Made by a program: the position numbers and the translations under genes
In this document: positions 13,877-37,737 of the stretch, in pieces
Layout: every line of letters begins with the position of its first letter
Numbering within the stretch: position 1 is the stretch's first letter
Notes under the pieces: model-generated
The model's input: the letters and a program-made list of their open reading frames with translations, nothing else
Database searches by the model: none
Told to the model about the DNA's origin: nothing
Origin: Clostridia bacterium
GTDB lineage: Bacteria > Bacillota > Clostridia > Oscillospirales > CAG-272
Length of the DNA stretch: 38,019 bases
Reading direction: 5' to 3'
Assembly (NCBI GenBank): GCA_017503285.1
Contig: JAFVTH010000030.1
Location: 1 to 38,019 of the forward strand

Positions 13877-13910
13877 AAAAGCCAACAGATTTTACTCTGT
13901 TGGCTTTTTG
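13877..13910. terminator. Bidirectional terminator between dusB and the giant surface gene
   Basis: AAAAGCCAACAGA / TCTGTTGGCTTTTT stem-loop with T tracts on both strands. The two genes converge here (stops at 13874 and 13919). Confidence 0.9.
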
Positions 13911-13918: not shown

Positions 13919-16900
13919 TTATCTCATGCCCTCAATAAGCGTAAAGATGTCGTCAACCGTTAAGTATCCTTTGCCTAAGAGAATCTTAAAGTATTGACCG
14001 TTAAGTGCAATGAACTCCTCGTATGAAACATAGTCCTTCCACTCCTCGTAGGTGAAAAGTCCATATTTTTCAATGTCGGCATCCATCTTTTCCTTATCGT
14101 ACATAAAGTCCTCGCCAAACTCGAAATAGGTTAGGAAGTTTGGTAGGTCCTCTGCTGTAAGAGTCATAAAGCCCTCAACAATTACATTATCGTTGCAAGC
14201 AGACCTTAGCGAGTAGCAGGATGAGTACTCGTATTTCATCTCTGCCGAGATAAGAACAGCATTTTCAAAGGTGCCACCTTCCCCAAGGCAAGCAAAGCTG
14301 TGTCCTAAGAAATCCTTGTAGTTGTTTGAATCAATATAAACAAACTTGTTCAAGGTGATATCAAAGAATCCGTGCTCCTCAACAACCTTAACCGTGTTGC
14401 CGTTTGAGAAGCCAAGGGTAATAACATTGTACCACGCCTCGCCATGGTTCCAGAATAGGGAGATTGGCATAGGCTCAAGCCTTCCTGTAATAGCATTCCA
14501 TGTAAAAACAAGGTCGCCCTGCTTCAAGGAATCAAGCCTTGCATAGCTACCGTCAGCCAAAGCCACCATGGTATCCCCTGTAAAGCAACCATTTGTGGAC
14601 CAGTCGAACTCTATATATGTGCTCTGCTCGGAATTTTTGTCAATTACCGTAAATCTAACCCTTCCGTTCTTTGCGTCTTCATTCTTTTTAACCGTAAAGA
14701 TGCTGTTAGAGGTGTCATAGCTTGCGCTCGCTCCAGAACCAAAAATTTGACGATCGTACGTGTAATTGCCCGATCCGCCGGTAATGTAAATATATTTAGA
14801 TTCCGTGGTTCCAATGTCCTTAAGGTCGTCGTTGTTGAAATTTTGGATGTCCAAGGATAGAGGCTCGTACCACTTGCTTGTAAAGAACGCTGTAAGGTTT
14901 TCAGCACCGTACTCAACGTGTGTTTGTAGCTTTTCCTCAAACATTGTACCATTTAAGTGCCAACCGTTGAATACATAGCCGTTTGCGCTGTTTCCTGTGT
15001 CTTTTGCAGTTGCCTCAAGATATGTTGTTATTTCATATTTTGAGTCTTTGCCCTCAATCGAGCCGGCATTTACAGGCTGTAGACCTCCACCACAATAGTT
15101 TCCAACCTTAATGGTAAGAGCTCCTACGCCGGGCTCCATAGCATCAGAGCCAAGCTTAATTGCGCCAAAGCCTCTAATAGCAGAATATCCACTTGGTGCT
15201 TGAACCAAGCATTCTCCTATACAATCAAGAGTTAGATTGATTGTCATAGATATGCTTGCTTGACAAATTGCACCCTTTATCTTGAAGCTCTTTAGCTCCA
15301 GCTTAACGGGCTGATTGTTTTTGCTAGAGTACAAATTAAAGGTTACATTGTCATAGGTATATGCTTCATTACCAACAATATAAATCTCTGTGGCATCTTC
15401 TATCAAAATATTCTTTCCGTTATTTGCCTTGCCGTCCGGGTCATCGCTCCAGTCAATTATTACATACTTGTTGATAATCTTTTCCGGTGTGTTTGTGTAG
15501 TCGTAAACTGCACTCAAATCCCATTTTGCGTACAAGGTTACATCCTGTGGATTTGCCTTAAGCACCTCTCTGTCAAACGGCTGAGCAAATTCCTCGTCCA
15601 TATACCAGCCAACAAACCTGTGGTATCTATAGTATTCCTTGTATACAGGCTCTGGCAAGGATATAGTATCTATGGTGTCAAGACGATAAGAGCCGAAGTA
15701 AACCGGTAAAAGGGCGCTCTCTGCCTCTTTGCTAATTTTGCCCTCTGTGCCCGTTGTTTGCTCGTCCAAAACCACGCCACCGTTTAGAGTGTATGTGATT
15801 TTGTAGGACTTCATATCCCAAACAGCCTTAAGCGTAATTATAGAGCCCTGCTTTGCCTTTGGTATGTAGCCGATAGATGTACCCACGCTTATCTGATCGC
15901 AGAAGGCGTTGTCAACATAAACGTCCCAACCGCTTAGGCTCCTGCCCTCGCTGGTTATGGTAACGCGTGAAAGGTCGTATGCGTTTTCAACGCTACAATC
16001 AGCAATATAAGGCTCATTGTCATCGTTTTCGCTACTACCACCAATTATGCCGGTACCACCATTAAAGTCTACCATTAAATCATATACAACAGGTGTATGC
16101 TTAGCATAAACCATATAGTAGCCGTTTACTGGCTCAAATCTAAGAATGTCCTCATTAGACTTAATCTCGGTAACCATTGAAAAGCCCTTGTCGCCGTACC
16201 AGCTTACCTGCTTTTCATAGCCGTTAATCACCATTTCCGGGAAGATGATTGTAGGCTCATCTGCCCAAACTGCAGTAAGTGTAACCTCACCATAGTTTTT
16301 ATTCTTCATATCACCTATCGCCTGCGCAATAGTCATATATCGAACACCGTTACTGCCTTGCCAATAAAGTAGCTTATATTTAAGGACATCAATCACGTCA
16401 GCCTTTCCCGGCTTATCGGAAATAAAGGCTACATTATATTCCTTCTTGTACTCGTTTTCGTCAATAACAATACTGCTATTTCCCGGATAGTACATATCCT
16501 CAATTTTGCCGTCGGTTGAGCCGTTGCCGTCAATCTTAACAGCATTAAGCTCCCATTGTGCGTAAAGCACTTGCTTTTTCTGGTTAGGGTTGTATCTTAC
16601 CGCATCCTCTAATGCTACCCTATTACCACCGGAAATCCTGTCAAACCAGCCAAGGAACTTGTAGCCTGTTCGGTTAAGCTCCACAAGGCCCGCCTCGCCA
16701 TAGGTGCTATTCTCCTCATAAATTGAAACCTTTATGTCGTTTAGGTCGTAGCCAAGTCCGTTGGTATTAAGCACAACCTCAAAATCCTGGGTCATTAGAT
16801 TTGTGCCATAGCCACCAACTATGTACTCAAGAAGAGCAACTATGTCATCAGGGGTAATTGCCTTGTCAAGATTTAGGTCTGCTTCCTTGGTATCAAGAGG

Positions 16901-19900
16901 ATATTCGCTTGAGTTTACATAGAACTTAGCAAGCAAAACCGCGTCCATAAGGTCAACAATGCCATCATCGTTAACGTCGCCGGGTAGGTCCTCTACCACC
17001 TTAATATAGCCGTCACGTGTAATCACGTTAATTCTCTTGCCGTTGGAAAATCCTCCCTCGATTTGAACGCCATCCTTAGATGCGCCCATATCGCTATAAA
17101 CAACGGATATTTTGTACTCATCGCCAAGCTTTGCTGCCTCTGTTACCTTAAAGGTAAGCTTTAGGATGTTGCCATCTCCCTCTACAAGGGCACTGTTTGC
17201 AAGCAGGAAGTTATAGCCGTAGTCAACTGCACCGCTTTCAGAAACCATGCTACCCTTAAATAGGTCGCCGTTTTGTGGTTTGCCAACAAGCTCTAGTCCG
17301 TCAGAATATCTTATGCCAAAGTTAACTGCCTTAACTCCCGGGTTGTTGATAAGCTGAACATAAACCACAACCAGGTCGCCACCGTTTAATACATAGCCGT
17401 TGCTAACCACAACGGTTGGTAGCTCCCTTTCCTTGTCTGTTATTTCGTTTTCGTCAACTACCTCTTTTGCAAATACGCTTCCGTCCTTTTTACAAACACA
17501 GGTGTAGGTATAAACGATATACCAGGACTGACTGCCGTCCTCGTTTGTAACAAGTCTTGTTTCCTCGCTAACGGAATAATGGTGATATTCACCGTGATTT
17601 CCATTTACGCAAATGTGAGTATTTTCGTCGTAATAAATGTAGTTGTGTGTTTGCTTAGGAATAAGAACGCCCTCAGCCATTACCTCTTTGCAAACAGCAC
17701 AGTTAACCCTGCCAACAACGCTGTCGCTTGTGCAGGATGGCTTTTCTACACTATCGTAGTCAGGAGTATGCTCAAGCTTTCTTAGATAGAATAGCTTAAC
17801 ATCTCCACATTCCTTACATTCGTAATAGTTGTAGCCAACCTCCGAGCAGGATGAAGGCTTTGATAGCTCAGGAATGTGCTCATATCCACTTTGCTCATCA
17901 ATAAAGTTGCTTCCGTGTCCGCATACCAAATAAACATCAAAGATGACAGTAACGCCTGCATAGGTTATTGTAGCCTTTTGCTTACCATAGCCTGAGTTGC
18001 CACCCTCTACTATAAATTCAGTACCAATTAGATCCTCTTTTACAGTTACATAAATAGGAGCGCCAACAGCATAGTTGTATTTTAGCACAAGTCCAGCTGC
18101 GCTAAACTCTCCAGATTTATAGAAATCCTTAAGGTTTTCAACCTCTATGCCGGTGCGTACATTTGCACCTACGGTCATTGTAACCTTTTTTGATGCGTAG
18201 ATTGTTTTTCCGTCCATATCGATAGCTATCAAAAAGGTTACATCACGCATTACGGACTCATGCTCTTTATTCATAGTATCAAAGCCGTAAACGCTAACTA
18301 TCTCGTACTCTCTTTCAACGCCACCAACATAAGCCTTAAGGCTTTCGGTTCTCAAGGTGTTTATTTCTGCAACAACACACTTGTCCCCAGATGTTAGCCT
18401 CATGCTTGAAATTCCCTTTTCGACAACTCCCACGCTTGCATATTCAAGCTTGCCACCAGGCAATCTCTTGTATTCAAATTCGTGTGATATTTCTCCGTGT
18501 ATCAGCCTTCCGTTGCCATCGTCAGATAGCAAAAGCTTGTAGCCCAGCGCATCGCACACGTAGGTTTTTGTTGTAACGTCAAGAGCTGTTTCCGTCTTTG
18601 TAAGAACAAAGTATTCTGTCAAGCTCTCGCCTGCCAAATAATTACCCTCGTAAGCCTTTTCGTTTGACTCTCCAAACTGTAAGGTTATATCGTAATCATA
18701 CCTTGTGCTATTTATAACTGCCTCAACATCCTCGGTTGCCTTTATGCGTTCTATATCATCCTCTGTACAGGTAGGACAAAATTCATCATCATCCTCAACT
18801 CGATTATGATGTTTTGGTATGAGATTGCTTTCGATGTGCGCATTGCTATAGAAAATTACCGCCCTTGCATCAATATTTATTACATAGTCGATTTTTGTTG
18901 TCTTACCAAAAGCTCCTCCGGCAAGAGCAGTTACAAATGGAGCAGTTTTAGAGTTAGAATCGCTTATGGACTCCGCTCTGTTTAGAATCTTTGTGCTTTC
19001 CTTTGTTATGGTGTAGCCAACAGCATGTTGGTTAATACCACAAATACCACCTGCGTAAGAAGCAAGCTTGTTTTTTGCCACAGGGTTTCCTGCAAAGTCG
19101 TGCTTTATGTATGCCTCAACAGCAACATTCTCCACAACACAGCAAGCAATTGTATTTGAGTTAGAGCCTGCAATACCACCTGTGTAAGCAAATATGTTTC
19201 TGTCAAGCACATTATTGTTAAGCTCAAGACTAACGCCATAATTAGGAATAAACTCACTCTTTGTATATTTCATCAAATCGGGATATTCAAAGAAATTCCA
19301 TAAAATGCCGTCATACAAGTCTATCTTACCACTCGCCAAGGCGCTTTCAACAAATCTTCTCTCTTCATCAGAAAGATCTTTATGTATAAGCTCACGATAG
19401 TTTGCAATTTCGCGTACCCAGATTTCTCCAGAGCCATCACTGTTTATATGGCAGAATCTGATTTTTCCTTTATTCTCGCCTGCAACTGTTCCTGCATAGA
19501 TAGATGTGGTTCCATCGGCTGCGTTTTGAAGGTTTGCCCAAGCCTTAACATTGTATAGGGTCAGGTCAGAGACCTCTCCACTTTCGCCAATGATGCCGAA
19601 AAGTCCGAGATGTGTGCCGTAGTCATCGCCCTTTATTTCAAGGTTGCTTATTGTATAGCCGTTGCCGTTTAGTGAGCCGGTAAATTCATCATAGACAACA
19701 GTGCCTACGCTATTTTCTCTCTCGCCAAATGGCTCAATTCTCATTCCTTCGAAATCAATGTTGTCAATCAAGCAGTAATGCTCGTCTAATCCCTTTCCGA
19801 TAGAAAGGAATTGCTCCGCTGTTGCGATTAGATATGGGTCATCGGCAGTACCACTACCACCTTGGAATTTTCCGCTTGTACCAACAGTAAATTCCATATT

Positions 19901-21565
19901 GCTTACAGGCACACCCTTGTAGCAAAGCTGTGCTACGATAGTCTCTGTGTTTGCGTCTGCAACAAATATACCATCAATTGTTACAGGAACGTTTACGTAG
20001 TATGTGAAGTCTTCTGACTCCATGCCAATAGACTCATAAATACTCTTTGGAATTTGATTGAGATAAACAATCTGGTTTGGTGCTATATTTCCAAAGGTCT
20101 GTTCGTCATTATTAGCTACTTCGTATATTCTGCCGTCGCTTGACTCAAGTATGTAGGAGTTGCTTATATCTAAAATGTAAGCAATATCCTTAGCAAGCTG
20201 AAGCTGGATTTCGCCTTCACGCAAAACGCCTTGGTCATATATACTGTCAAGATCCACCGTTCCTTCAATCTGCGTTCTTGTTACCATTGCGCCTGTGCTT
20301 TGGTCATATACATAATATTCGGTTTCATTCAAGAGCATATATGAATATTGATAAAGGTTGCACGCTGCAACAATCTCGCTTGACATACGCTCTGTTTCGT
20401 AAAGATCGTATGCAAATAGCAGTGCCATATGCTCAGGGGTGGAGCCGTTTTTCTCGGTTATTTCAGGATACGCCTTAAGAACATCGTAATAGTATTGAAC
20501 TATTGATTTTCCCACCTCAGAGCCGATTATATAGTCGTAATATTCGTCCCTGTCGTTCATTATAGAGGTGTAAAGCCTATCATAGTAGCCCTTTACAACA
20601 TCATCAGATGCTCCGCTGATTATTGCCTGCTTAAGTAGTGAATAGTAAGCAGTTGTTCCCTTGCTGTTTCCTGTTGTTGCGCCGTAAAAATAGTTTCTGT
20701 ATTGATTATAGCTAAAGTTGCCCTCTCCGCTAAGCAAAAAGGTTTGAACATAAGCCCTTGCCTCAGCGTTTTCAATAGCAATAGGTATTTCCTCTAAAAT
20801 CCTATTTGTTGACTCGTTAATTTGATTAGACAAGTCATTGATTTGCTCCTCAACGCCGGAAATTTGATTTTTAATGTCGTCAAGCTGTTGATTGAGCCTG
20901 TCCTCCATCTGTGCCATTTCCGAGGTTGGTGCCTTGCCACCAACACAAAGCTCAACAAGAAGGCCTATTGCGTTTATGCCTGCCGAAATAAGCGCGCCGT
21001 ATGGTCCAAAGCAAGCCGCAACGCTACTTGCCAAAGAAATCACGTTTTTAAAGATGTCCATGCTTTTTCCATCAGCTTCGTTTTTGCATGCCGCAAGCAA
21101 GCTTGGTAAACCTTTAATAAGCGCATCAGCTGCCTTGGCGCTTCTTTCTAATGCTTTATTATCCTTCTTTTTTGCCTCTTCCTTTTTGTTGGCTTCTCCC
21201 TCTCCTCCAGGGGCTTCCTCTTTCTCGTTTTCTTCCTCTTTTTTGTTTTCTTCCTCTGTTTCAGCCTGTTCCTTCTTTAGCTGCTCTATCTCGCGCTCTA
21301 ATATTTCTGCCTCCTGCTTTAGAGCGTTTATCTTAGATAGGCTTTCGTTATATCTGCCCTCAAGATCTAAATATCCAAGGCGCAAGCTCAAGCCATCCAT
21401 ATCTAACTGTTCCATGGGAGATCTTTCATAAATACCAAACATATTTTGATATTTATCGTTTGCTTTTGTTTCCGGCTCTTGAGCAACTGCCACAGTGGAA
21501 AATGCCACTGGTAGAAGCATTACTAAAGCAAGAATAACAACAACTATTCTAGTTATTATCTTCAT
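13919..21565 (-). CDS. Giant secreted multidomain protein: GLUG, cohesin, dockerin, InlB repeats and C-terminal Hint domain
   Basis: 2548 residues; ATG 21565 has GGGAGGAG. Signal peptide 1-~29 (core VVVILALVMLLPVAFSTVAV). Coiled coil ~65-125 rich in E/K; hydrophobic region ~168-200; second coiled coil ~205-260 with repeated QINDLSNQIN-like heptads. GLUG-type segment ~569-690 (GTADDPYLIATAEQF). Cysteine-pair region ~1215-1340 (YECKECG, NCAVCKE). Cohesin-like domain ~1385-1520 (ending in a DGYIKVV strand). Dockerin ~1527-1590 with two Ca-binding repeats (GDVNDDGIVDLMD and ADLNLDKAITPDD). InlB/Listeria-Bacteroides repeats ~1595-2013 (FLGWFD, FVGWYMDEEF). Beta-rich region ~2020-2325. Hint domain ~2327-2465 starting CFTGDTMVALADGS, with VVEEHGFF as the block-B His region. 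Tail ~2466-2548. Starts 15 nt after the lipoprotein gene, so the two form an operon. Substrate and processing are unknown. Confidence 0.88.
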   Translation of the reverse strand: MKIITRIVVVILALVMLLPVAFSTVAVAQEPETKANDKYQNMFGIYERSPMEQLDMDGLSLRLGYLDLEGRYNESLSKINALKQEAEILEREIEQLKKEQAETEEENKKEEENEKEEAPGGEGEANKKEEAKKKDNKALERSAKAADALIKGLPSLLAACKNEADGKSMDIFKNVISLASSVAACFGPYGALISAGINAIGLLVELCVGGKAPTSEMAQMEDRLNQQLDDIKNQISGVEEQINDLSNQINESTNRILEEIPIAIENAEARAYVQTFLLSGEGNFSYNQYRNYFYGATTGNSKGTTAYYSLLKQAIISGASDDVVKGYYDRLYTSIMNDRDEYYDYIIGSEVGKSIVQYYYDVLKAYPEITEKNGSTPEHMALLFAYDLYETERMSSEIVAACNLYQYSYMLLNETEYYVYDQSTGAMVTRTQIEGTVDLDSIYDQGVLREGEIQLQLAKDIAYILDISNSYILESSDGRIYEVANNDEQTFGNIAPNQIVYLNQIPKSIYESIGMESEDFTYYVNVPVTIDGIFVADANTETIVAQLCYKGVPVSNMEFTVGTSGKFQGGSGTADDPYLIATAEQFLSIGKGLDEHYCLIDNIDFEGMRIEPFGERENSVGTVVYDEFTGSLNGNGYTISNLEIKGDDYGTHLGLFGIIGESGEVSDLTLYNVKAWANLQNAADGTTSIYAGTVAGENKGKIRFCHINSDGSGEIWVREIANYRELIHKDLSDEERRFVESALASGKIDLYDGILWNFFEYPDLMKYTKSEFIPNYGVSLELNNNVLDRNIFAYTGGIAGSNSNTIACCVVENVAVEAYIKHDFAGNPVAKNKLASYAGGICGINQHAVGYTITKESTKILNRAESISDSNSKTAPFVTALAGGAFGKTTKIDYVINIDARAVIFYSNAHIESNLIPKHHNRVEDDDEFCPTCTEDDIERIKATEDVEAVINSTRYDYDITLQFGESNEKAYEGNYLAGESLTEYFVLTKTETALDVTTKTYVCDALGYKLLLSDDGNGRLIHGEISHEFEYKRLPGGKLEYASVGVVEKGISSMRLTSGDKCVVAEINTLRTESLKAYVGGVEREYEIVSVYGFDTMNKEHESVMRDVTFLIAIDMDGKTIYASKKVTMTVGANVRTGIEVENLKDFYKSGEFSAAGLVLKYNYAVGAPIYVTVKEDLIGTEFIVEGGNSGYGKQKATITYAGVTVIFDVYLVCGHGSNFIDEQSGYEHIPELSKPSSCSEVGYNYYECKECGDVKLFYLRKLEHTPDYDSVEKPSCTSDSVVGRVNCAVCKEVMAEGVLIPKQTHNYIYYDENTHICVNGNHGEYHHYSVSEETRLVTNEDGSQSWYIVYTYTCVCKKDGSVFAKEVVDENEITDKERELPTVVVSNGYVLNGGDLVVVYVQLINNPGVKAVNFGIRYSDGLELVGKPQNGDLFKGSMVSESGAVDYGYNFLLANSALVEGDGNILKLTFKVTEAAKLGDEYKISVVYSDMGASKDGVQIEGGFSNGKRINVITRDGYIKVVEDLPGDVNDDGIVDLMDAVLLAKFYVNSSEYPLDTKEADLNLDKAITPDDIVALLEYIVGGYGTNLMTQDFEVVLNTNGLGYDLNDIKVSIYEENSTYGEAGLVELNRTGYKFLGWFDRISGGNRVALEDAVRYNPNQKKQVLYAQWELNAVKIDGNGSTDGKIEDMYYPGNSSIVIDENEYKKEYNVAFISDKPGKADVIDVLKYKLLYWQGSNGVRYMTIAQAIGDMKNKNYGEVTLTAVWADEPTIIFPEMVINGYEKQVSWYGDKGFSMVTEIKSNEDILRFEPVNGYYMVYAKHTPVVYDLMVDFNGGTGIIGGSSENDDNEPYIADCSVENAYDLSRVTITSEGRSLSGWDVYVDNAFCDQISVGTSIGYIPKAKQGSIITLKAVWDMKSYKITYTLNGGVVLDEQTTGTEGKISKEAESALLPVYFGSYRLDTIDTISLPEPVYKEYYRYHRFVGWYMDEEFAQPFDREVLKANPQDVTLYAKWDLSAVYDYTNTPEKIINKYVIIDWSDDPDGKANNGKNILIEDATEIYIVGNEAYTYDNVTFNLYSSKNNQPVKLELKSFKIKGAICQASISMTINLTLDCIGECLVQAPSGYSAIRGFGAIKLGSDAMEPGVGALTIKVGNYCGGGLQPVNAGSIEGKDSKYEITTYLEATAKDTGNSANGYVFNGWHLNGTMFEEKLQTHVEYGAENLTAFFTSKWYEPLSLDIQNFNNDDLKDIGTTESKYIYITGGSGNYTYDRQIFGSGASASYDTSNSIFTVKKNEDAKNGRVRFTVIDKNSEQSTYIEFDWSTNGCFTGDTMVALADGSYARLDSLKQGDLVFTWNAITGRLEPMPISLFWNHGEAWYNVITLGFSNGNTVKVVEEHGFFDITLNKFVYIDSNNYKDFLGHSFACLGEGGTFENAVLISAEMKYEYSSCYSLRSACNDNVIVEGFMTLTAEDLPNFLTYFEFGEDFMYDKEKMDADIEKYGLFTYEEWKDYVSYEEFIALNGQYFKILLGKGYLTVDDIFTLIEGMR

Positions 21566-21580
21566 TCTCTTCTCCTCCCG

Positions 21581-24500
21581 TTAACGATATACGACCACAG
21601 GGGTTACCTTTTGCAGAGTAACATTTCCATGCTCGTCTGTAACACTTATGATTGCATTACTGCTCTCAACAATAAAGGATTCTGCTCCCACGCCTGTTCC
21701 GTCTGTTGAGAATTCAAAGGTGAGCACCCTTGAGCACCAGTTATATTGCTTTCCGTTGGCATCTGACCAAGCAAAGGTAAAGGTGCTTTCGTTGTTGTTT
21801 ATTACGTACTGGTTGTTATTATTTCCGTTGCTGTCAGCAACCCAGAATGGGCTTGCAGAGTTAAACACAACGGAGTCTATGGATATTTTACCTACTCTTG
21901 TTTCGTAGCTTATTGTTAGCTCTATTGCGTTCATGCTTGTTTCTGCATAATTATAGATGTAAAGATTTGCTGACTTGTTATTTGCCTTGTCAAATTCAAC
22001 CACAATTGCAGGTCCTTCAAAAACAGAATCATAAACCGCATGAACAACTGTGTCCTCTGTTATCCTGTTAAATCTTTCCTGCCAGCCTGTAAATCCATAA
22101 ACCTCCAGTGCGTTTCCGTTTTCAGATGCAAACACCTCCGGTCTTTCAGGGGCTATGGCAGAAAATCCGTGTGATACAGTCTGCTCTGCTTCCTTGGTTA
22201 TTGCCGTAAAGCAGATTGGACATGCAAAATCTACAAGCTCTGCCCTTTGATGGTATTTTTTACATACGCTACAATAGTAACGAACAAGAGGAGTGCCGTC
22301 TGGCAATACAAATTGAACCTTATAGGTATTAATTTTGTAAATTGCCTTAACTACCGTATCCTCTGCTATGCTTGATGTGTCCTTGTCCCATTTCTCAAAG
22401 GTAAAGCCCTCAAGCTGTGGTGCGCTTGGTGGTGTTGCGCCTGCGCCAAGGTCCACCATCTCTTCCTTAAGAAGTGCGCCGTCTGCGCCATAGAAGCTAA
22501 CCTTGTATTGCTTTACATATTCAGCGCTTACCTCAATATCGCTTACAACGTCGGTAAAGGTTGTGTTCCAGCCCACAAATCTGTAGCCTGCTCTTTCAGG
22601 CGCTTGTGGTGCTGTTGCGCTTCCGTTATAGTCAACCAGCGCTATTTCTATAATAGAACCATTATAGTCAAGGAATGTAACCTCGAAGCATTGAACGTAT
22701 GTAGCCTTAACGGTTATGTTATCTGTTACGTTGTCAAACGCAGTATCCCAGCCGATAAACCTAAAGCCGTTTCTTTCCGGGTCGCCCGGCTTTTCTGCGC
22801 CTTGACCATATTCAACCTCCACGGAGCTTAGCTCTGTGCCGTCATAGTCGCAGAATACAACCTTGTATAGGCGTGCTGTCGTTGTATACCTTGCGTATGC
22901 AACAGAGTCCTCGGTAACGCTATCAAAAATAGCCTCTGTGTTACCGCCATTTTCACTTACCCATTTTTCAGAGGTAAAGGTGCTTTCGTTTGTTGATTCC
23001 TTAGTTGGCAAGGAGTTTGGATAGGTTGCGCCCTCTCCATGAGCCACAACCACTCTACCAAGCTCAGTTACACCATCATCATCGTAGAATATAACTGTAT
23101 GCTTGTTTGCCATATTTGTAAACTGTGCAAGGTATGTTATATCGCCATCTACACTTGATATAACAGGGCTCCAGCCGCTAAAGGTGTAAACGTTTTCGTT
23201 ATCAGCCTCCTTGGTTGGGGTTTTGCCATTATATATAGGTGTTACGCCATAGCGTACATTTTCGTCAATTTCCAAAATGTCATCGCCATTTTTCCAGATT
23301 ACCTTATAGGAATTAATTGTTCTTGTAAAGGAAGCGTAAATAACCGTGTCGTGGTCTACCGTGCTCTTGTGGCTCCAGCCGGCAAAGTCGTAGGTATACT
23401 GTGGGGTTGACTCGTTAGCTGTGGCTACAACCTCTTGACCGTTTACCATTATTTTTGCGCCGTCGCTTGTAATTTCAGCGCCGTATGGAATGTTATCAAG
23501 CACAGACTCTGTAACTGTACCATAATCTATATTGCTTGAAACCACATAAACCGTTACAAGCCTTACAAAGGACTTAAAGGATGCATAGGCAGAAATTTCT
23601 CCCTCCACAAACTTAAGGCTCTGTGTCAAATCCTCGCCGTCCCGGCTTACCCATTTTTCAAAAAGGTAGGTGTGACCGGCTGTTGCGTTTTTGATAGGCG
23701 TTGGCTTGGAATACTTAGCCTCACTACCATAATCAACGGTTATCTTGTCTAATATTGTATTTCCGTCCTCTGAATAGAAGGTAACATTATAGGACCTTAG
23801 TGTTTCCTCAAACTGCGCCTCATAGGTTATGGATTCCTTAACCATATCAACCTCAGGGCTCCAGCCGCTAAAGGTATATGTATACTGGGCTGTTGCTTCC
23901 TTAGCCGGTGTTTCTCCGTCATAGGTTGGGGTTGAGCCATAAAGCATATTTTCGTCAGTTTCCAAAACAGTGTCCCCGTTTTTCCAAACAATCGTAAACT
24001 TATTTGGTGCTGTTGTAAACTGCGCCTCATAGGTAACGTTGCCTGTTACCTCACTAACAACAGGGCTCCAGCCGGTAAAGATGTAAATATATTGCACATC
24101 TGATGGTCTTTCCGGCATTTTGCCGTCGTAGGTTGGCATAGTGCCGTATTCAACGCCCTTGTCCACCTCTAGAACCTCATCGCCGTTTTTCCAAGTAACA
24201 GTGTACTTGTTTACAACGGGAGCAAACATAGCGGTGTAGGTTGTGTCCTCTGTTGCCGGTGCAATATCCGGTGTCCAGCCAGCAAAAATATAGGAATACT
24301 GCTTATCGGGTAGCTTTACAGGTGTATCCCCGTCATAAACAGGGGTTGTACCCTCCTCAAAGGAGTCCACCTTTATTACAGTATCACCATTTTTCCAGGT
24401 TATGTTATACCAAGGGGTAGGTCTTACATAGGTAACAGCGTTACTCCAATCGCTGTTTGAATAACCAATCAGGTCGCCAATTGCCCTTATCTTAAAGGTT

Positions 24501-24757
24501 TGACCGTCCTCAAGCTTACGACTGGTCAAGGAGTTTTCAACATAGTAAAGGTTTCCGTCAAGGCTGATTTCGAACCTATCGGCAAAAATCTCCTCCTTCC
24601 AATACGCAGTATCTCCGTAAAGCCTTACCGTTGGAGTTGGTAGCTTTTTTAGATTTCTTGGTGTTGACTCTCCATCATCACAGCCTGCAAGCACAAAAAT
24701 GCTACACAAAATAAGTAAAATCGCTATGCAGATCGTTAAAAAGTGAGATTTTTTCAT
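21581..24757 (-). CDS. Surface lipoprotein with eleven InlB-like repeats and a cohesin-like C-terminal domain
   Basis: 1058 residues from ATG 24757 (AGGAGGAG at 4 nt); the frame stays open 35 codons upstream, through the leader. Lipoprotein signal: KKSHF, hydrophobic core, lipobox VLAGC. Eleven repeats of ~60-80 residues follow, of the type YxVTWKNGDxVLExD...YTFSGWSP...YEAQF, known as InlB B-repeats or Listeria-Bacteroides repeats. Repeat 11 is interrupted by a CSVC...CPIC insertion. The last ~140 residues (from PAIVVEFDKANNKSANLYI) are a beta-sandwich-like domain that resembles a cohesin; this is a weaker call. The lipid anchor would hold it on the membrane outer face, with the repeats as a stalk. 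Promoter at 24962-24990, with a terminator-like hairpin in the leader. Confidence 0.88.
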   Translation of the reverse strand: MKKSHFLTICIAILLILCSIFVLAGCDDGESTPRNLKKLPTPTVRLYGDTAYWKEEIFADRFEISLDGNLYYVENSLTSRKLEDGQTFKIRAIGDLIGYSNSDWSNAVTYVRPTPWYNITWKNGDTVIKVDSFEEGTTPVYDGDTPVKLPDKQYSYIFAGWTPDIAPATEDTTYTAMFAPVVNKYTVTWKNGDEVLEVDKGVEYGTMPTYDGKMPERPSDVQYIYIFTGWSPVVSEVTGNVTYEAQFTTAPNKFTIVWKNGDTVLETDENMLYGSTPTYDGETPAKEATAQYTYTFSGWSPEVDMVKESITYEAQFEETLRSYNVTFYSEDGNTILDKITVDYGSEAKYSKPTPIKNATAGHTYLFEKWVSRDGEDLTQSLKFVEGEISAYASFKSFVRLVTVYVVSSNIDYGTVTESVLDNIPYGAEITSDGAKIMVNGQEVVATANESTPQYTYDFAGWSHKSTVDHDTVIYASFTRTINSYKVIWKNGDDILEIDENVRYGVTPIYNGKTPTKEADNENVYTFSGWSPVISSVDGDITYLAQFTNMANKHTVIFYDDDGVTELGRVVVAHGEGATYPNSLPTKESTNESTFTSEKWVSENGGNTEAIFDSVTEDSVAYARYTTTARLYKVVFCDYDGTELSSVEVEYGQGAEKPGDPERNGFRFIGWDTAFDNVTDNITVKATYVQCFEVTFLDYNGSIIEIALVDYNGSATAPQAPERAGYRFVGWNTTFTDVVSDIEVSAEYVKQYKVSFYGADGALLKEEMVDLGAGATPPSAPQLEGFTFEKWDKDTSSIAEDTVVKAIYKINTYKVQFVLPDGTPLVRYYCSVCKKYHQRAELVDFACPICFTAITKEAEQTVSHGFSAIAPERPEVFASENGNALEVYGFTGWQERFNRITEDTVVHAVYDSVFEGPAIVVEFDKANNKSANLYIYNYAETSMNAIELTISYETRVGKISIDSVVFNSASPFWVADSNGNNNNQYVINNNESTFTFAWSDANGKQYNWCSRVLTFEFSTDGTGVGAESFIVESSNAIISVTDEHGNVTLQKVTPVVVYR

Positions 24758-24786
24758 AACTCTCCTCCTATTTTCCCTGTGAAAAC

Positions 24787-24811
24787 AAAAAAGCGCTGCC
24801 GAAGCAACGCC
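24787..24811 (-). terminator. Terminator-like hairpin in the leader of the lipoprotein operon
   Basis: On the minus strand: GCGTTGC, TTCG tetraloop, GCAGCGC (one G-U pair), then six T. It lies between the operon promoter and the ribosome site, 30 nt before the start codon. It would cut the transcript at ~165 nt unless transcription reads through. Confidence 0.7.
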
Positions 24812-24961
24812 AAAACAAGCTCCGAAAGTCATAACTCGCCTTATTTGGCATAATGCAAGCATAAGCTTTCTTTGCTTAAATCCCCAATATTACACGCAAA
24901 AACCTATATAATCCTACAAAAGCCATTCTATTTTACACAAGGTAATTTGTCTACTGCTTTT

Positions 24962-24990
24962 ATTATAATATATATCTGTCCTTCATTCAA
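24962..24990 (-). promoter_or_regulatory. Sigma-A promoter of the surface operon
   Basis: Minus strand TTGAAT, 17 nt, TATAAT. Transcription would start near 24955, giving a leader of ~200 nt. The 64 bp between this promoter and the mscL terminator hold nothing I can name. Confidence 0.8.
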
Positions 24991-29618: not shown

Positions 29619-30743
29619 CTATTTTCTTCTTTCGACAAAGTCCTTAAATATCTCCGGGATTTTAATATTCTGCGGACAAACGCTCATACAAGCGCCACAG
29701 GCAATACAGGCTGACGGGTGCTGTGTCTTATCCATAGACCCAAGCCTCATTGACACTACAAAGCCACCACCGGAAAAAACCTGCTCATTATACAGAGATA
29801 TCAAAAGCGGTATATCAAGCCCCTCTGGGCAGTACTCCGTACAGTAGCGACAGGCTGTGCATTGAACGCTCATTGTCATTTCATATCCAAGGGACAAAAG
29901 TGCGTCCATTTCCGCCTTGTCAAGTGGAGCTTTTTTGCTAAAGGTGCTTATATTTTCCTTTACCTGCTCCATATCGGACATACCGAAAAGGGTAACTAAA
30001 ACACCATCTACGCTTTGGACAAATCTAAATGCCATTTCAACAGGGCTTGCCCCCGGTCTTATTTGGTTTATTTTTCCCTGCTCTCCCTCGCTCAGCTTGG
30101 CAAGCCTACCACCGCGAATAGGCTCCATAACCCAAATCGGAATATTTCTCTCGTTGAGATACTCAACCTTAGCCCTTGCATTTTGAAAATCGTAGTCAAG
30201 GTAGTTTAGCTGTATCTGGCAAAACTCCATATGCTCTTTGTACTTATCCATAAAGCGCTTGAAGTTGTTAAAATCTGCGTGGGTGGAAAAGCCAAGGTGC
30301 TTTATTTTGCCCTGCCTTTTCATTTCAAGAAGATACTCAACGGTTTGGTACTGTGGGTCAAGATAGTATTCAATATTTGCCTCGCAAACGTTATGTACAA
30401 GGTAAAAATCAAAGTAGTCAACCTGACATTTTTCAAGCTGTCTTTGAAAAATCTCTCTTACCTTGCCCATATTATTTACATCATAGCCGGGGAATTTTGT
30501 GGCAAGATAGTATTTTTCCCTTGGAAAGCGGGAAAGGACCTTGCCCATTACTATTTCGGACTGTCCCATATGATAGCCCCAAGCCGTGTCAAAGTAATTT
30601 ACGCCATTATTTATGGCATATTCCACCATTTCATAGACACGTCCCTCGTCTATTTTAGAGTTATCCCCATCAATAGTCGGTAAGCGCATTGTGCCAAAGC
30701 CAAGGGTGGAAATTCTTAATTCCTTAAAATTTTTATAAATCAT
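29619..30743 (-). CDS. Aldo/keto reductase with C-terminal ferredoxin-type domain
   Basis: 374 residues. The N-terminal ~285 residues are an AKR TIM barrel with the catalytic tetrad D52, Y57 (FDTAWGYHMGQSE), K83 (LATKFPG) and H117 (YFDFYLVHN). The C-terminal part has two 4Fe-4S motifs: CTACRYCTEYCP near 295 and CIACGACMSVCP near 345. This fused architecture is common in strict anaerobes; the electron donor may be ferredoxin rather than only NAD(P)H. The substrate is unknown. It starts 3 nt after the preceding stop with only a weak ribosome site, so translational coupling is likely. Last gene of a four-gene operon. Confidence 0.93.
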   Translation of the reverse strand: MIYKNFKELRISTLGFGTMRLPTIDGDNSKIDEGRVYEMVEYAINNGVNYFDTAWGYHMGQSEIVMGKVLSRFPREKYYLATKFPGYDVNNMGKVREIFQRQLEKCQVDYFDFYLVHNVCEANIEYYLDPQYQTVEYLLEMKRQGKIKHLGFSTHADFNNFKRFMDKYKEHMEFCQIQLNYLDYDFQNARAKVEYLNERNIPIWVMEPIRGGRLAKLSEGEQGKINQIRPGASPVEMAFRFVQSVDGVLVTLFGMSDMEQVKENISTFSKKAPLDKAEMDALLSLGYEMTMSVQCTACRYCTEYCPEGLDIPLLISLYNEQVFSGGGFVVSMRLGSMDKTQHPSACIACGACMSVCPQNIKIPEIFKDFVERRK

Positions 30744-30746
30744 AGC

Positions 30747-31172
30747 TTAGTCCAGTAAATACCTTTTGGTAATTTTTCCTTCCTTATTTATGCCGTACTC
30801 CTTGTTTTCGGGGTCGATTTCAAACACAAGCTCATCTCGCCTGTCAAAGAAATAAGGGTTTATGTCTGTTGTTTCCTTAGGAAACACAACTCTCTTTAAT
30901 GCTTTTGGCGTTTTTATCCTTACAAAATCAAGCTCATACCTTTCGGGTATATAATCCATTCCCTGCGCAGGGTGGTGCCAGTCGTGCCAGCGCTCCTCTG
31001 CCTCCTTATGCTCCTCGCGATATCCAAAATGAGTTATGATAGTGCCCTCATATGTGCCGGGGATGTATAAAGTCTCTTCCCCCTCTTCAAGGACAACGTC
31101 CCTTATGCAAAGATACCTTTTTTCCTCTCCCACAGCGCCCTTTCTTACAACGCCAATATCAAATCGCGCCAT
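30747..31172 (-). CDS. Hypothetical 141-residue cytoplasmic protein
   Basis: Not recognised. ATG 31172 with AAGGAG at 7 nt, lying inside the end of the upstream membrane-protein gene (14-nt overlap). No signal peptide or membrane segment. The composition is charged, with many aromatic residues (EERWHDWHHPAQGMDYIPER), and the body looks beta-rich (ETLYIPGTYEGTIITHFGYR; RRDELVFEIDPENKEYGINK). The His/Trp cluster near residue 65 could bind metal. Its position between the membrane protein and the reductase suggests a shared role. Confidence 0.75.
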   Translation of the reverse strand: MARFDIGVVRKGAVGEEKRYLCIRDVVLEEGEETLYIPGTYEGTIITHFGYREEHKEAEERWHDWHHPAQGMDYIPERYELDFVRIKTPKALKRVVFPKETTDINPYFFDRRDELVFEIDPENKEYGINKEGKITKRYLLD

Positions 31173-32094
31173 TTTTTCTCTCCTTAATAAGGTTAATAAG
31201 TCTAAGCACCATTACAGCCGTGCCTGTTACAATTGTAGCTATAACCACAAGCACCTCAACCGGGAAGGACACGGAAAAGGTTATAATAAGGAAAACCTTT
31301 CCTATATGTACCATAAAGTCCGGGGTTAATAGCTCAAAGGCAAGAAGAAGGGCAAGAAAAATTACGTTTATAGACACTCCCCCTGCCAAAATGCCAATTT
31401 TACCACCCCTTGAGGCTGCAAGCCCCTCAGGCTTTAAGGTGACTATAATTAGGTTTAGAATAGGCAAAAGACCTATAAAAATCATAATGTAAATAAACCT
31501 TGGGTCATATAGTGCGTTTTCAATAGCAGTAAAGCCCATCAGCCCATCGCCCACAAAGGCAAGGGCAAAAATTGTTAGCGGCAAAAGGGCAAGAAATTTC
31601 CCCTTTGTTATTTCAACTGTGCTACAAAGGTTTATTTTCTCGTGGATTTTGCCAACCCTTCCCTCCGGCTTTAAGGTGGCTATAAGTCCAAGGGCAACAA
31701 GCGCAAGAACCACCACATTTATTAAAATACCGTCAATCGGAAAGCCTACCGTTGGCATTGATGAGTATACACCAAGGTTAAGGTTGCTTATATAAATATC
31801 TATGCTGACAAATGTGCCCATAAGACTAAGAATTGAAAGCGTGCCGAAAACAGAGATCATACCAAGCCTTGTGCCCCTTTTAATTCTTGCAATATAAGTA
31901 TCATAGAAGAAGGCAAGAACCATACAAGGGATTAAAAGATAGGTAAACACCATAGGTGCCATAAGCAACGGATATCCAAAGCTGTTTGCCACAAAGCCGG
32001 AAAGCATTTTGTAAAAGGAAAACATGCTAAGGCAGGACACAAAAAACGCAAGAATTGTGCCTATATTTATAAAGAGCTTTAATTTCTTACTCAT
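31159..32094 (-). CDS. Polytopic membrane protein of unknown function
   Basis: 311 residues with about eight or nine hydrophobic segments and a basic C-terminus (LINLIKERKNGAI). Two internal KPEG motifs (LKPEGRVGK near 142, LKPEGLAAS near 223) after related helices suggest an internal duplication. No transporter motif recognised. ATG 32094 overlaps the end of the phosphoesterase gene by 8 nt, and the gene overlaps the next by 14 nt, so it is a firm operon member. Could be a transporter or a lipid-modifying protein. Confidence 0.8.
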   Translation of the reverse strand: MSKKLKLFINIGTILAFFVSCLSMFSFYKMLSGFVANSFGYPLLMAPMVFTYLLIPCMVLAFFYDTYIARIKRGTRLGMISVFGTLSILSLMGTFVSIDIYISNLNLGVYSSMPTVGFPIDGILINVVVLALVALGLIATLKPEGRVGKIHEKINLCSTVEITKGKFLALLPLTIFALAFVGDGLMGFTAIENALYDPRFIYIMIFIGLLPILNLIIVTLKPEGLAASRGGKIGILAGGVSINVIFLALLLAFELLTPDFMVHIGKVFLIITFSVSFPVEVLVVIATIVTGTAVMVLRLINLIKERKNGAI

Positions 32095-33208
32095 ATTTTT
32101 CTGCCCCCGTTCTTACATTTTCAAAGCAGTCATTTATGTTTTCTATGGTAACAAATTCCTTTGGGGTTAGGTCCTTAAGGGTCACTGTCTTATAGCCAAG
32201 CATATCCTTGTCGTGATATACCTGGTCTGTCGACTTTACACCATAGGAGAAAATTGCCATATTCTCAAAAGCCTCGCCCTTGTTATAAATAATGTCGCAG
32301 CTGTTTACATGGTCGTGGCCAACAAAGTAGGAAACGATATTTGCCTCACGCAGAGCCTTGAAGGAGCCGTTGTTTTCGTAAGGGTCGCTGACAGGCTCTC
32401 TTAGCTCGCCCTGCCCTATCTTACTTGGGTCGGTGGCAAGGATATACTGCTCCTCTGCCTCCCCAAACTCCTCAAAGGGGATATGGAAAAACATCATACC
32501 CACATAGTCCTTATCAGCCGTTGCCTGGTCATAAATTTTCTTTGCGTGCAAAAGCTGCTCGGTATGTATAGTGTCATAGCCGTACTTTATGCCTGTGTAG
32601 TGATAGGTGTTTGAGTCAATTATATGTATTCTGTACTTAACATCTACTGTATCTCTGTCCTTGGTTCTGTCGTCAACTAGGTCAATATAGTAGTTGGTCA
32701 GTCCGAAAAGGTTGTCGTCCTCGTAGTCAACAAAGGCAGCAAACTTGCCCTCTTCCTTTTCCTTGCCGTCCTCTGCCACATAGGATTTTATAGTGTTGTT
32801 AAGGTAATACCTTGGGTAGTCCCCTTGGTTGTCGTGGTTGCCATAGGTAACGGCAAATTTTGTCAGTCTGCCATTTTCGTCAGCCTCGGTAAGACGCTTG
32901 CAAAGAGAGTTTAGCAGCCCAAAAAGCTCATTTGCAATAGCCTTGTTGCCGTACATTAGGTTGTCGCCGGTTAGAATAATCAAGTCGGGGTCTGCCTCAA
33001 TAACAGATTTTTCCACAACACTCATTTGCGACCTTAGGTCACTTTCAATGCCAAAGTGCAAATCTGCAATTTGCATTATCTTAAACCCCTCATAGTATTC
33101 CATTGTGGTTCGATAGTCCAAAACGTCGTATTCCCTTGTCCCCGCCCCGCAGGAAGCCAAGGCGCAAAGCGCCAAGGTAACACACAGCACTAAAATCACT
33201 TTTTTCAA
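32087..33208 (-). CDS. Calcineurin-like metallophosphoesterase lipoprotein
   Basis: 373 residues from TTG 33208, chosen because GGGGGG lies 6 nt upstream. The alternative ATG 33241 would lie at or before the predicted transcription start (~33238). Lipoprotein signal KKVILVLCVTLALCALASC. Metallophosphoesterase motifs in order: DLHFG, GDNLM, GNHDN, FFHIPFEE, GHDHVNSCD. These coordinate two metals for phosphoester hydrolysis. The lipid anchor places it outside the membrane, so the substrate is extracellular or envelope-linked. First gene of the operon ending with the aldo/keto reductase. Confidence 0.9.
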   Translation of the reverse strand: MKKVILVLCVTLALCALASCGAGTREYDVLDYRTTMEYYEGFKIMQIADLHFGIESDLRSQMSVVEKSVIEADPDLIILTGDNLMYGNKAIANELFGLLNSLCKRLTEADENGRLTKFAVTYGNHDNQGDYPRYYLNNTIKSYVAEDGKEKEEGKFAAFVDYEDDNLFGLTNYYIDLVDDRTKDRDTVDVKYRIHIIDSNTYHYTGIKYGYDTIHTEQLLHAKKIYDQATADKDYVGMMFFHIPFEEFGEAEEQYILATDPSKIGQGELREPVSDPYENNGSFKALREANIVSYFVGHDHVNSCDIIYNKGEAFENMAIFSYGVKSTDQVYHDKDMLGYKTVTLKDLTPKEFVTIENINDCFENVRTGAEKYE

Positions 33209-33244
33209 AATAAACCCCCCTATAGTTGAAAACAAATACATCTT

Positions 33245-33273
33245 ATTCTATCATATTTCGACAAAATTATCAA
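33245..33273 (-). promoter_or_regulatory. Promoter of the phosphoesterase operon
   Basis: Minus strand TTGATA, 17 nt, TAGAAT; predicted start near 33238, 30 nt before the TTG codon. Confidence 0.75.
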
Positions 33274-33291
33274 CTACTCTTGCCCACATTC

Positions 33292-33321
33292 AAAAAAGGA
33301 TGGCGCTTGCCATCCTTTTTT
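33292..33321 (-). terminator. Terminator after the second lipoprotein operon
   Basis: AAAAAAGGATGGC, GCTT loop (AAGC on the minus strand), GCCATCCTTTTTT; it abuts the stop codon of the SHOCT gene. Confidence 0.88.
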
Positions 33322-33485
33322 TATAAATCTTCTCTGTCGCCAAGACCCATTTTTTCCTTCATACAGGTGTAGCTTTTTTCGTATTGAGCCTTTGTAATTG
33401 CGCCGGTTTTCAAAAATGTATCAAGCAGCTTTTTCTGGTCAAGAAATAGCTTTATCTTCTTTTGCTCAGGTGTTTGCTCTTCCAT
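33321..33485 (-). CDS. SHOCT-domain-like small protein
   Basis: 54 residues: an acidic N-terminus, then LFLDQKKLLDTFLKTGAITK and AQYEKSYTCMKEKMG, which fits the SHOCT pattern (L..L...GxIT...Y/F). SHOCT segments are short oligomerisation or targeting motifs. ATG 33485 follows GAGGG at 5 nt, one base after the upstream gene's stop. The open frame extends further upstream but only shadows the neighbour. Function unknown. Confidence 0.7.
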   Translation of the reverse strand: MEEQTPEQKKIKLFLDQKKLLDTFLKTGAITKAQYEKSYTCMKEKMGLGDREDL

Positions 33486-33486
33486 T

Positions 33487-33990
33487 TTATCCCTCTTTTT
33501 TGACAAGTGTATATTCCCAGCTACGCTCCTTTGAGGAGCTTGAGCCGTAAAAGCTATACTCTGACTCGTTCTTGCCGACAATAGTGCCATCGGCTTGCAA
33601 AATGCAATACCACCAATCGTCGTAGTTAGAAAATCCGTTTCCACCCCAGCGCCTTGCCTTTATTACCACTCCGGCAAATTGACCGTTCAGCACTAAAATA
33701 TCTCCCTGCGCCTCGTCTGTGGAATAGCAGCTAGAGGACAGACTTACAATATTTTCAAGCTCAAAGCTCTTGTAATCATGGCTTACCGATGGGTAGTCGT
33801 CATCATCGTATTCTATTTCATAGCGCTCGTACACAGAAAGGGTGTATTCTGCCATCTGCTTTTTTATTTGCTCTGTGGTTTTTTCGTCCAGCCTTCCATA
33901 GGTAAGCTTGTATGGACCGATTTTTGTTCCTCTGTCAGGCTCCTTCTTCTCGTCAACCTCTACAAGAAACCTTGCATATGTTTTTTCCAT
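33487..33990 (-). CDS. Hypothetical 167-residue protein
   Basis: Not recognised. ATG 33990 with AGGAG at 6 nt. No signal peptide. The body alternates charged helices (LDEKTTEQIKKQMAEYTLSV) with beta-rich parts (GDILVLNGQFAGVVIKARRW) and a WWYCILQADGTIVG segment. It lies 9 nt after the lipoprotein gene and 1 nt before the SHOCT gene, so all three form one operon. Confidence 0.72.
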   Translation of the reverse strand: MEKTYARFLVEVDEKKEPDRGTKIGPYKLTYGRLDEKTTEQIKKQMAEYTLSVYERYEIEYDDDDYPSVSHDYKSFELENIVSLSSSCYSTDEAQGDILVLNGQFAGVVIKARRWGGNGFSNYDDWWYCILQADGTIVGKNESEYSFYGSSSSKERSWEYTLVKKEG

Positions 33991-33999
33991 CTTATTCTC

Positions 34000-35091: not shown

Positions 35092-35125
35092 AGTCAAGCC
35101 CCCCCTAAATCTGTTTTTCATATTC

Positions 35126-35154
35126 ATTATACCACTAACGTTTTTTAGTTGCAA
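35126..35154 (-). promoter_or_regulatory. Sigma-A promoter of the second lipoprotein operon
   Basis: Minus strand TTGCAA, 17 nt, TATAAT, giving a leader of about 28 nt. Confidence 0.85.
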
Positions 35155-35183
35155 GATTTTAGCACACATTAGAGCAAAATTAA

Positions 35184-35213
35184 AAAAGCCGGCCTGTCAA
35201 GAAGCCGGCTTTT
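35184..35213 (-). terminator. Terminator after the HTH-ATPase gene
   Basis: AAAAGCCGGC / GCCGGCTTTT with a 10-nt loop, 20 nt after the stop at 35234. Usable on both strands. Confidence 0.82.
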
Positions 35214-35233
35214 CTTATTTATAATTTGATATG

Positions 35234-36274: not shown

Positions 36275-36306
36275 AGCTCTTCCTCCTCAAATATGATTAT
36301 ATAAGT

Positions 36307-36335: not shown

Positions 36336-36339
36336 TATA

Positions 36340-37718: not shown

Positions 37719-37737
37719 TACACACCTCTCAAAGTAT

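What the first reader, a model, noticed from the sequence alone, without database searches (positions are those of the whole stretch)
13919..24757. Two-gene surface operon combining a lipid anchor, cohesin, dockerin and Hint modules
A lipoprotein with an InlB-repeat stalk and a cohesin-like tip is followed, 15 nt later, by a 2548-residue secreted protein that carries both a cohesin-like and a canonical dockerin domain. One chain with both halves of the pair could polymerise or dock to the anchored partner. No glycoside hydrolase is present, so this is not an ordinary cellulosome. Inference: a surface assembly built by cohesin-dockerin contacts.
Basis: partly seen in the sequence, partly recalled or inferred. 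Interest (0 to 1): 0.75.

Follow-up and report, generated by a model that had tools for sequence, protein, structure and literature searches.

The report
Lipid-anchored cohesin with co-transcribed dockerin giant
Two neighbouring genes look like a lipid-anchored docking post and a giant secreted protein carrying the matching plug; similar gene pairs recur in related bacteria with adhesin-like or pore-former-like cargo instead of cellulases, but no binding has been tested.

Summary
Two genes on the minus strand, 15 nt apart, encode an InlB-repeat lipoprotein and a 2548-residue secreted protein with cohesin and dockerin domains over Pfam's cut-offs; the Hint match is below its cut-off. The lipoprotein tip alone is unrecognisable, but the tips of three orthologous lipoproteins are cohesins, and the four-tip profile matches cohesins at 98%, E 1e-13.

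The pair is a recurring design. In fetched loci of relatives, a cohesin-only protein with a C-terminal cohesin is followed by a dockerin gene in 12 of 19 evaluable cases, against 24 of 740 control neighbour slots. Of 39 proteins with an N-terminal cohesin, 15 show the mirror order. The giant's helical head recurs in four other dockerin giants behind cohesin-tipped genes, and once with a membrane anchor instead. MACPF heads show the same alternatives.

Best reading: the anchored cohesin captures the dockerin and displays the giant on the cell surface. Polymerisation is possible but unproven, and this pair's two cohesins are not alike. The cargo's function is unknown. A new, non-enzymatic variant of anchoring and adaptor scaffoldins.

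The parts
24962..24990 (-). sigma-70-like promoter site (TTGAAT-17-TATAAT) upstream of the lipoprotein gene
   Evidence: consensus match 10 of 12; the region has 31 such matches against 24.9 +/- 5.1 in shuffles, so weak
24792..24811 (-). terminator-like hairpin plus U-run in the leader, between the promoter-like site and the ribosome-binding site; possible attenuator
   Evidence: leader 24745-24950 folds at z -3.05; no Rfam family in the window at gathering scores
21581..24757 (-). cohesin-tipped lipoprotein gene (1058 aa from the likely start; the ORF listing starts it at 24862)
   Evidence: orthologues in G593 and G694 are 49% and 47% identical over alignments of 1076 and 1091 positions
24680..24757 (-). 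lipoprotein signal peptide with lipobox LAGC, lipidated Cys codon at 24680-24682
   Evidence: sequence; rule-based detection
22028..24415 (-). InlB / Listeria-Bacteroides repeat stalk (approximate bounds)
   Evidence: PF09479, 67 bits, 4 stretches
21584..22018 (-). C-terminal tip: diverged cohesin (residues 949-1093 of P0002)
   Evidence: alone not significant; orthologous tips E 1e-9 to 1e-11 with a cohesin model that excludes them; four-tip profile hhalign 98.1%, E 1.2e-13, 200 decoys at most 9.8%
13919..21565 (-). giant secreted protein gene, 2548 aa, starts 15 nt after the lipoprotein stop
19871..21478 (-). N-terminal helical head (giant residues 30-565) with a hydrophobic hairpin at about residues 175-210
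   Evidence: shared with L064 and L104 and with G593, G694, G239; hydropathy; helical in a low-confidence model of residues 128-432 (pLDDT 53.6); no convincing Pfam or PDB family
19466..19861 (-). GLUG-like beta-repeat region (about residues 569-700)
   Evidence: aligned to L082, L097, L099, L104; PF07581 hit in L104, none in the window protein
16991..17413 (-). cohesin of the giant (about residues 1385-1525)
   Evidence: PF00963 24.7 bits, cut-off 24.1; six-frame E 1.3e-7; family profile A1, which contains it, matches solved cohesins at 9.7e-13
16808..16987 (-). type I dockerin of the giant (residues 1527-1586), about 3 residues after the cohesin's last strand by eye; second Ca loop degenerate
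   Evidence: PF00404 26.9 bits; PDB dockerins E 8.5e-6; alignment
15476..16768 (-). InlB repeats of the giant (approximate bounds)
   Evidence: PF09479 49.3 bits, 2 stretches
13922..14587 (-). C-terminal Hint-like module plus conserved tail; not present in the G001 orthologue
   Evidence: PF01079 24.9 bits, under its cut-off; 9 relatives aligned; G001 giant ends otherwise
13877..13908 (.). bidirectional terminator-like hairpin closing the operon and the convergent dus gene
   Evidence: 13 pairs, found on either strand

Best explanation
The first gene makes a membrane-lipid-anchored protein whose repeat stalk carries a cohesin at its outer end. The second, very probably co-transcribed gene makes a giant secreted protein with no recognised anchor of its own. 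Its dockerin plugs into the anchored cohesin in a Ca-dependent way, so the giant, with its helical head, beta-repeat region and InlB repeats, is displayed on the cell. It is a one-post, one-cargo docking system. Shown by sequence: the domains, the conserved operon, the gene order and the substitution of docking by direct anchoring. Inferred: the binding itself, surface location and the role of the cargo, for which a membrane-acting or adhesive surface effector is my guess.
For: Domains. The tip is a cohesin by orthology. The orthologous operon, a cohesin-tipped lipoprotein followed by a helical-head giant with a dockerin, is present in G001, G593 and G694, and a looser relative in G116. C-terminal-cohesin genes have a dockerin gene next downstream in 12 of 19 evaluable cases, the window included (8 of 15 in loci fetched after the cohesin search), against 24 of 740 control slots; Fisher p 7e-13 and 2e-8. 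Order: 12 downstream and 0 upstream for C-terminal cohesins; for N-terminal ones 15 of 39 have a dockerin gene upstream, one of which also has one downstream (p 4e-7 for the difference in order). Where an anchor can be recognised (lipobox, C-terminal transmembrane helix, SLH) the cohesin is at the other end of the protein. Anchor swap: the helical head in G239 has no COH/DOC but a C-terminal transmembrane helix. Of 12 MACPF proteins, 5 lie in COH/DOC anchor operons, 4 have a lipobox of their own by eye and 3 have neither. Anchor-cohesin and partner-dockerin similarities correlate (Mantel r 0.65, p 2e-4, 20 pairs; species relatedness not removed).
Against: No binding data and no complex model. 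The window's tip has lost the NNPG motif and is not detectable alone. Its similarity to its own partner's cohesin ranks 20th of 20. The giant's second Ca loop is degenerate. 7 of 19 C-terminal-cohesin proteins and 24 of 39 N-terminal ones have no dockerin gene in the expected place. Of the 12 C-terminal positives 5 have a signal peptide but no recognised lipobox and 2 are truncated; of the 15 N-terminal positives 7 (L095, L096, L100, L101, L106, L143, L150) have no anchor that I recognised.
Confidence: 0.65

Rival explanations
1. Chain growth: the anchored cohesin takes the dockerin of the first giant, whose own cohesin takes the dockerin of the next, giving a surface fibre.
For: The cohesin-dockerin tandem recurs (54 rows in the fetched loci, one of them a duplicate). 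In 10 of 20 pairs the anchor's cohesin is most like its own partner's cohesin, and the excess identity is highest in the stretch that ends at the conserved Trp (17 pairs), near the dockerin-binding face (recalled). Precedent: R. bromii Amy4 carries both modules and is drawn as able to self-aggregate (PMC5814915, passages).
Against: In the window pair and G001 the two cohesins are unlike (ranks 20 and 15 of 20). A linker of about 3 residues may block access. Nothing was measured.
Confidence: 0.25
2. The giant's cohesin is not a receptor but a rigid companion of the dockerin, like the X module of X-dockerin pairs (recalled); only the anchor's cohesin binds dockerins.
For: Linker of 2-5 residues in 46 of 54 tandem rows by model bounds; the window's is 17 by model bounds but looks like 3 residues by eye.
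Against: The cohesin sub-type of the tandem tracks the anchor's cohesin in half of the pairs, which suggests that it keeps a dockerin-binding surface.
Confidence: 0.25
3. The cohesin-like and dockerin domains are relics used as plain structural modules in an adhesin; the two proteins do not bind.
For: Diverged tip, degenerate second Ca loop; the head is unknown.
Against: Conserved adjacency and order across genera; dockerin Asp/Gly columns of the Ca loops are among the most conserved of the tandem alignment; docking and direct anchoring substitute for each other.
Confidence: 0.15
4. A remnant or part of a carbohydrate-degrading cellulosome.
For: The same bacterial family includes genomes with at least 31 dockerin matches (the number scored was capped) and a seven-cohesin protein with a dockerin (L107).
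Against: One dockerin and one detectable cohesin in this genome, no glycoside hydrolase domain in the window ORFs scanned. The genome is only 74.7% complete.
Confidence: 0.05

Closest known systems
Paenibacillus guangzhouensis monovalent adaptors with SLH-anchored cohesins (PMC11557425, section 15 read)
   Same: Single dockerin-cohesin pairs on many proteins, with anchored cohesins onto which they could dock; described there as distinct from conventional cellulosomes
   Different: There the cargo is in many instances a glycoside hydrolase and the anchor SLH; here no enzyme domain was found in the cargo and the anchor is a lipoprotein encoded next to it
Ruminococcus bromii amylosome: Amy4 with Sca2/Sca5 (PMC5814915, passages)
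   Same: One chain with cohesin and dockerin, surface cohesin receptors, Ca-dependent binding of the Amy4 dockerin to cells shown, self-aggregation proposed
   Different: Starch enzymes as cargo, sortase-type anchors
Mucinolysome of Limousia, cSca5 (PMC12997984, passages)
   Same: N-terminal cohesin on a wall-anchored protein, predicted to take up dockerins, in gut bacteria
   Different: LPxTG anchor; CAZyme and peptidase cargo
Group 4 and unknown-domain dockerin proteins of R. flavefaciens FD-1 (PMC2930009, passages)
   Same: Non-carbohydrate cargo such as LRR; the authors suggest roles in structuring the cell surface
   Different: Part of a large cellulosome; no dedicated anchor gene beside each cargo gene is mentioned in the passages that I saw

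Membership tests
Cohesin (PF00963), giant | curated Pfam score | tested here: met
   24.7 against 24.1 bits, just over
Cohesin (PF00963), lipoprotein tip | curated Pfam score | tested here: not met
   no match at E <= 1; relation shown only through orthologues
Cohesin, both domains | nine-strand jelly-roll fold (recalled) | tested here: inconclusive
   tip model pLDDT 35; the giant's cohesin was not modelled
Cohesin, both domains | binds a dockerin | not testable with these tools
   needs a binding assay
Dockerin type I (PF00404) | curated Pfam score and duplicated Ca-binding repeat | tested here: met
   26.9 against 22.9 bits; both repeats present, but Gly at loop position 6 of the second is replaced by Lys
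Cellulosome | multi-cohesin scaffoldin plus dockerin-bearing glycoside hydrolases | tested here: not met
   one dockerin and one model-detectable cohesin, both in the giant, in the 74.7%-complete genome
Anchoring scaffoldin | cohesin plus a cell-surface anchor | tested here: inconclusive
   lipobox met; cohesin met only through orthologues; a lipid anchor is not among the SLH and non-SLH examples listed in the passages of PMC11557425 that I saw
Monovalent adaptor scaffoldin | one dockerin and one cohesin in one chain | tested here: met
   giant
Hint / Hedgehog-type autoprocessing | curated Pfam score | tested here: not met
   24.9 against 29.7 bits; first Cys and one His invariant in 10 of 10 aligned members
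Pore-forming protein (MACPF or alpha-helical) | MACPF domain, or a solved pore-former related to the head | tested here: not met
   no MACPF in the own genome at E <= 0.001; the head has only coiled-coil-like matches in PDB and Pfam

The most novel reading that the evidence does not exclude
Cohesin-dockerin docking has been taken over to hold membrane-acting heads (MACPF in some relatives, a helical domain with a hydrophobic hairpin here) on the outside of these bacteria: a tethered, perhaps contact-dependent, weapon or host-surface effector whose cargo gene sits beside its own dedicated docking post.
Probability: 0.2. Interest if true: 0.85.

Novelty: new variant of a known kind. Interest (0 to 1): 0.6.

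Why it matters
Cohesin-dockerin pairs are known mostly from sugar-degrading complexes (recalled, and the papers listed). A recurring one-post, one-cargo operon with non-enzymatic heads would show the interaction used as a general surface-display mechanism, and it gives some two dozen natural anchor-cargo pairs (12 and 15) on which dockerin specificity and self-assembly can be tested. The literature library holds no paper with both 'dockerin' and 'MACPF'.

Tried and rejected
Fold of the tip: a single-sequence AlphaFold2 model failed (pLDDT 35). I did not use alignment A4 (tip with the giant's cohesin), because its pairing differs from that of the family alignment. The long-helix, hydrophobic-hairpin, long-helix order is suggestive of alpha-pore-formers only by recall.

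Relatives for a structure alignment: viral contigs gave none for either protein. The genome-contig scan gave one locus, which matches only the InlB repeats.

A role of the Hint module in docking was rejected: it is absent in the G001 orthologue and present in 9 other proteins with no cohesin or dockerin found in their fetched loci, filters off. HMMER's composition-bias filter hid three cohesins in G593 and G694 (both lipoprotein tips and the G593 giant); re-checked with filters off, no further ones were hidden in the original set, the MACPF loci or the G239 locus.

Rows dropped or set aside. One search listed 23 C-terminal-cohesin ORFs: the duplicate L077 anchor was dropped; L082 and L094 (downstream gene cut by the contig end) and L122 (edge) were not counted. 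The L081 upstream neighbour was called 'edge' by the script and counted as dockerin; only pairs with a cohesin-only anchor next to a COH-DOC tandem were used (20); pairs whose partner has a dockerin alone were left out. WIN, L100 and L150 were left out as too diverged (17 pairs).

Full report
WHAT IS THERE. Two minus-strand genes: a lipoprotein gene (21581-24757 from its likely start) and, 15 nt later, a 2548-codon gene (13919-21565). A promoter-like site lies before the first, a Shine-Dalgarno-like GGAGGAG lies in the gap, and a bidirectional hairpin closes the operon. The lipoprotein has a lipobox, InlB repeats and a 145-residue tip. The giant has a signal peptide, a helical head, a GLUG-like region, a cohesin, a dockerin, InlB repeats and a C-terminal Hint-like module. 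Cohesin and dockerin pass Pfam's cut-offs, the cohesin barely; the Hint does not.

IS THE TIP A COHESIN? Alone, no tool sees it: hhalign 1.2%, E 0.042; HMM E 2.4. It was not found by the family model in the own genome. The orthologous lipoproteins settle its descent. G593 and G694 carry lipoproteins 49% and 47% identical over alignments of 1076 and 1091 positions, and G001 a shorter one. The three tips (G593, G694, G001) hit a cohesin model from which all of them are excluded at E 5.6e-10, 1.1e-11 and 1.2e-9, and the first 12-sequence model A1 at 4.2e-4, 7.8e-7 and 9.2e-10. The four-tip profile matches 145 cohesins at 98.1%, E 1.2e-13, with 200 column-shuffled decoys reaching at most 9.8% and E 0.0033. 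The window's tip is thus a diverged cohesin by descent. Whether it still folds and binds as one is not known.

OWN GENOME. One dockerin (E <= 0.01) and one cohesin (E <= 1), both in the giant. The assembly is 74.7% complete.

RELATIVES. In 196 genomes of the family, 121 have a dockerin and 85 an A1-type cohesin at E <= 0.001 (the match lists were cut). I fetched loci around relatives of the giant and around the better cohesin hits, and annotated 101 loci and the window with iterated cohesin and dockerin models. Among cohesin-only ORFs, 23 have the cohesin at the very C-terminus. After removing one duplicate, two with the downstream gene cut off and one at an edge, 19 remain: 12 have a dockerin gene next downstream (WIN, L064, L074, L078, L085, L086, L087, L088, L091, L093, L097, L104), 7 do not (L109, L136, L137, L141, L152, L164 twice). 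Restricted to the loci it is 8 of 15 (one, L085, adjoins a locus already fetched for the giant). Control: 24 of 740 same-strand neighbour slots (gap up to 250 nt) of other genes in the same loci. Fisher p 7e-13 and 2e-8. These loci were chosen for cohesins or for the giant, so the numbers describe association, not genome-wide frequency.

GEOMETRY. When the cohesin is C-terminal the dockerin gene is downstream in all 12 positives. When it is N-terminal (39 ORFs) the dockerin gene is upstream in 15, one of which also has one downstream; 24 have none upstream. Anchors: of the 12 C-terminal positives, 5 have a lipobox by my rule, 5 only a signal peptide, 2 are truncated. Of the 15 N-terminal positives, 7 have a C-terminal transmembrane helix (6 by rule, L123 by eye), 1 has SLH domains (L105), 7 have no anchor that I recognised. 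Where an anchor is seen, the cohesin is at the other end, as a receptor should be.

CARGO. Pfam on 14 partner-type proteins finds MACPF in 3 (L082, L097, L106), BspA-type LRR in 2 (L078, L123), InlB repeats, Big_3, GLUG, BACON and C-type lectin in others, and no glycoside hydrolase domain at E <= 0.01; one CBM30 match lies just over its cut-off (L101). Three of three MACPF proteins in the 196-genome sample lie in cohesin-dockerin anchor operons (in L099 the MACPF ORF and the COH-DOC ORF are separate and overlapping). Adding the genus (29 genomes) and order (394 genomes) samples, which overlap, 12 distinct MACPF proteins were seen: 5 in such operons (G102, G140, G176, G013, G278; G013 is seen only as a cohesin lipoprotein beside a MACPF gene cut by the contig end), 4 with a lipobox of their own by eye (G001, G315, G470, G439), 3 with neither (G450, G379, G058). 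The window's helical head was found in 5 of 385 family genomes including its own, plus G001. In the window, G001, G116, G593 and G694 it comes with a dockerin and an upstream cohesin-tipped gene; in G239 it has neither, but a C-terminal transmembrane helix. Direct anchoring and docking therefore look interchangeable, which is the best evidence that docking serves surface display.

CHAIN OR COMPANION? The tandem's linker is 2-5 residues in 46 of 54 rows by model bounds (one row a duplicate). In 10 of 20 pairs the anchor's cohesin is closest to its own partner's (mean rank 4.65; none of 20000 permutations as low), and own-pair identity is 38% against 27% for crossed pairs over 17 pairs, the excess being highest in the stretch that ends at the conserved Trp. 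This fits a dockerin that can use either cohesin, hence chains. But the window pair ranks 20 of 20, as does L100, and G001 15 of 20, so for this operon the data do not favour chains. Relatedness of species was not removed from these tests.

LITERATURE. Anchoring scaffoldins, monovalent adaptors and chains with both modules are known (PMC11557425 passages and section 15; PMC5814915 passages; PMC12997984 passages). 'Dockerin' with 'MACPF' returned 0 papers. 'Anchoring scaffoldin' with 'lipoprotein' returned 6, seen as a listing, of which one was read in passages, which describe SLH anchoring (PMC5817068). 'Scaffoldin' with 'lipobox' returned 23, ten listed, several of them for 'scaffolding'. I saw no description of a lipid-anchored cohesin paired with its cargo gene, within these searches only.

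VERDICT. The pair belongs to a recurring one-post, one-cargo variant of cohesin-dockerin display that I did not find described. Binding, polymerisation and cargo function remain to be tested.

Noticed in passing
13922-14587 (-) and L065-L073: A C-terminal Hint-like module with a conserved tail ends ten aligned proteins, one of them elsewhere in the own genome (G000:C7). The first Cys and a downstream His are invariant, and the weak PDB matches of the profile include Hedgehog autoprocessing domains (E 8e-4). It might attach or release the protein's C-terminus.
   Followed up: partly
24757-24950 (-): The leader of the operon folds better than shuffles (z -3.05) and holds a terminator-like hairpin before the ribosome-binding site; no Rfam match. 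Possible attenuator.
   Followed up: partly
L107 7573-10599 (-): A relative encodes a protein with seven cohesins and a dockerin near a further dockerin protein, so scaffoldin-like proteins also occur in this bacterial family.
   Followed up: no
L357 5979-9332 (-): G001 has a MACPF lipoprotein whose N-terminal anchor region resembles that of the window's lipoprotein (34%, E 9e-10), on a contig other than its docking operon.
   Followed up: partly
29619-37895 (-): A run of minus-strand genes with an aldo/keto reductase-ferredoxin, a metallophosphatase, a HATPase-DUF4325 protein and a PD-(D/E)XK nuclease, and several ORFs without Pfam match.
   Followed up: no
G102, G140, G176, G013, G278 (L097, L106, L099, L082, L361): MACPF proteins are rare in these bacteria (3 of 196 family genomes), yet sit in cohesin-dockerin operons in 5 of the 12 cases seen.
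   Followed up: yes
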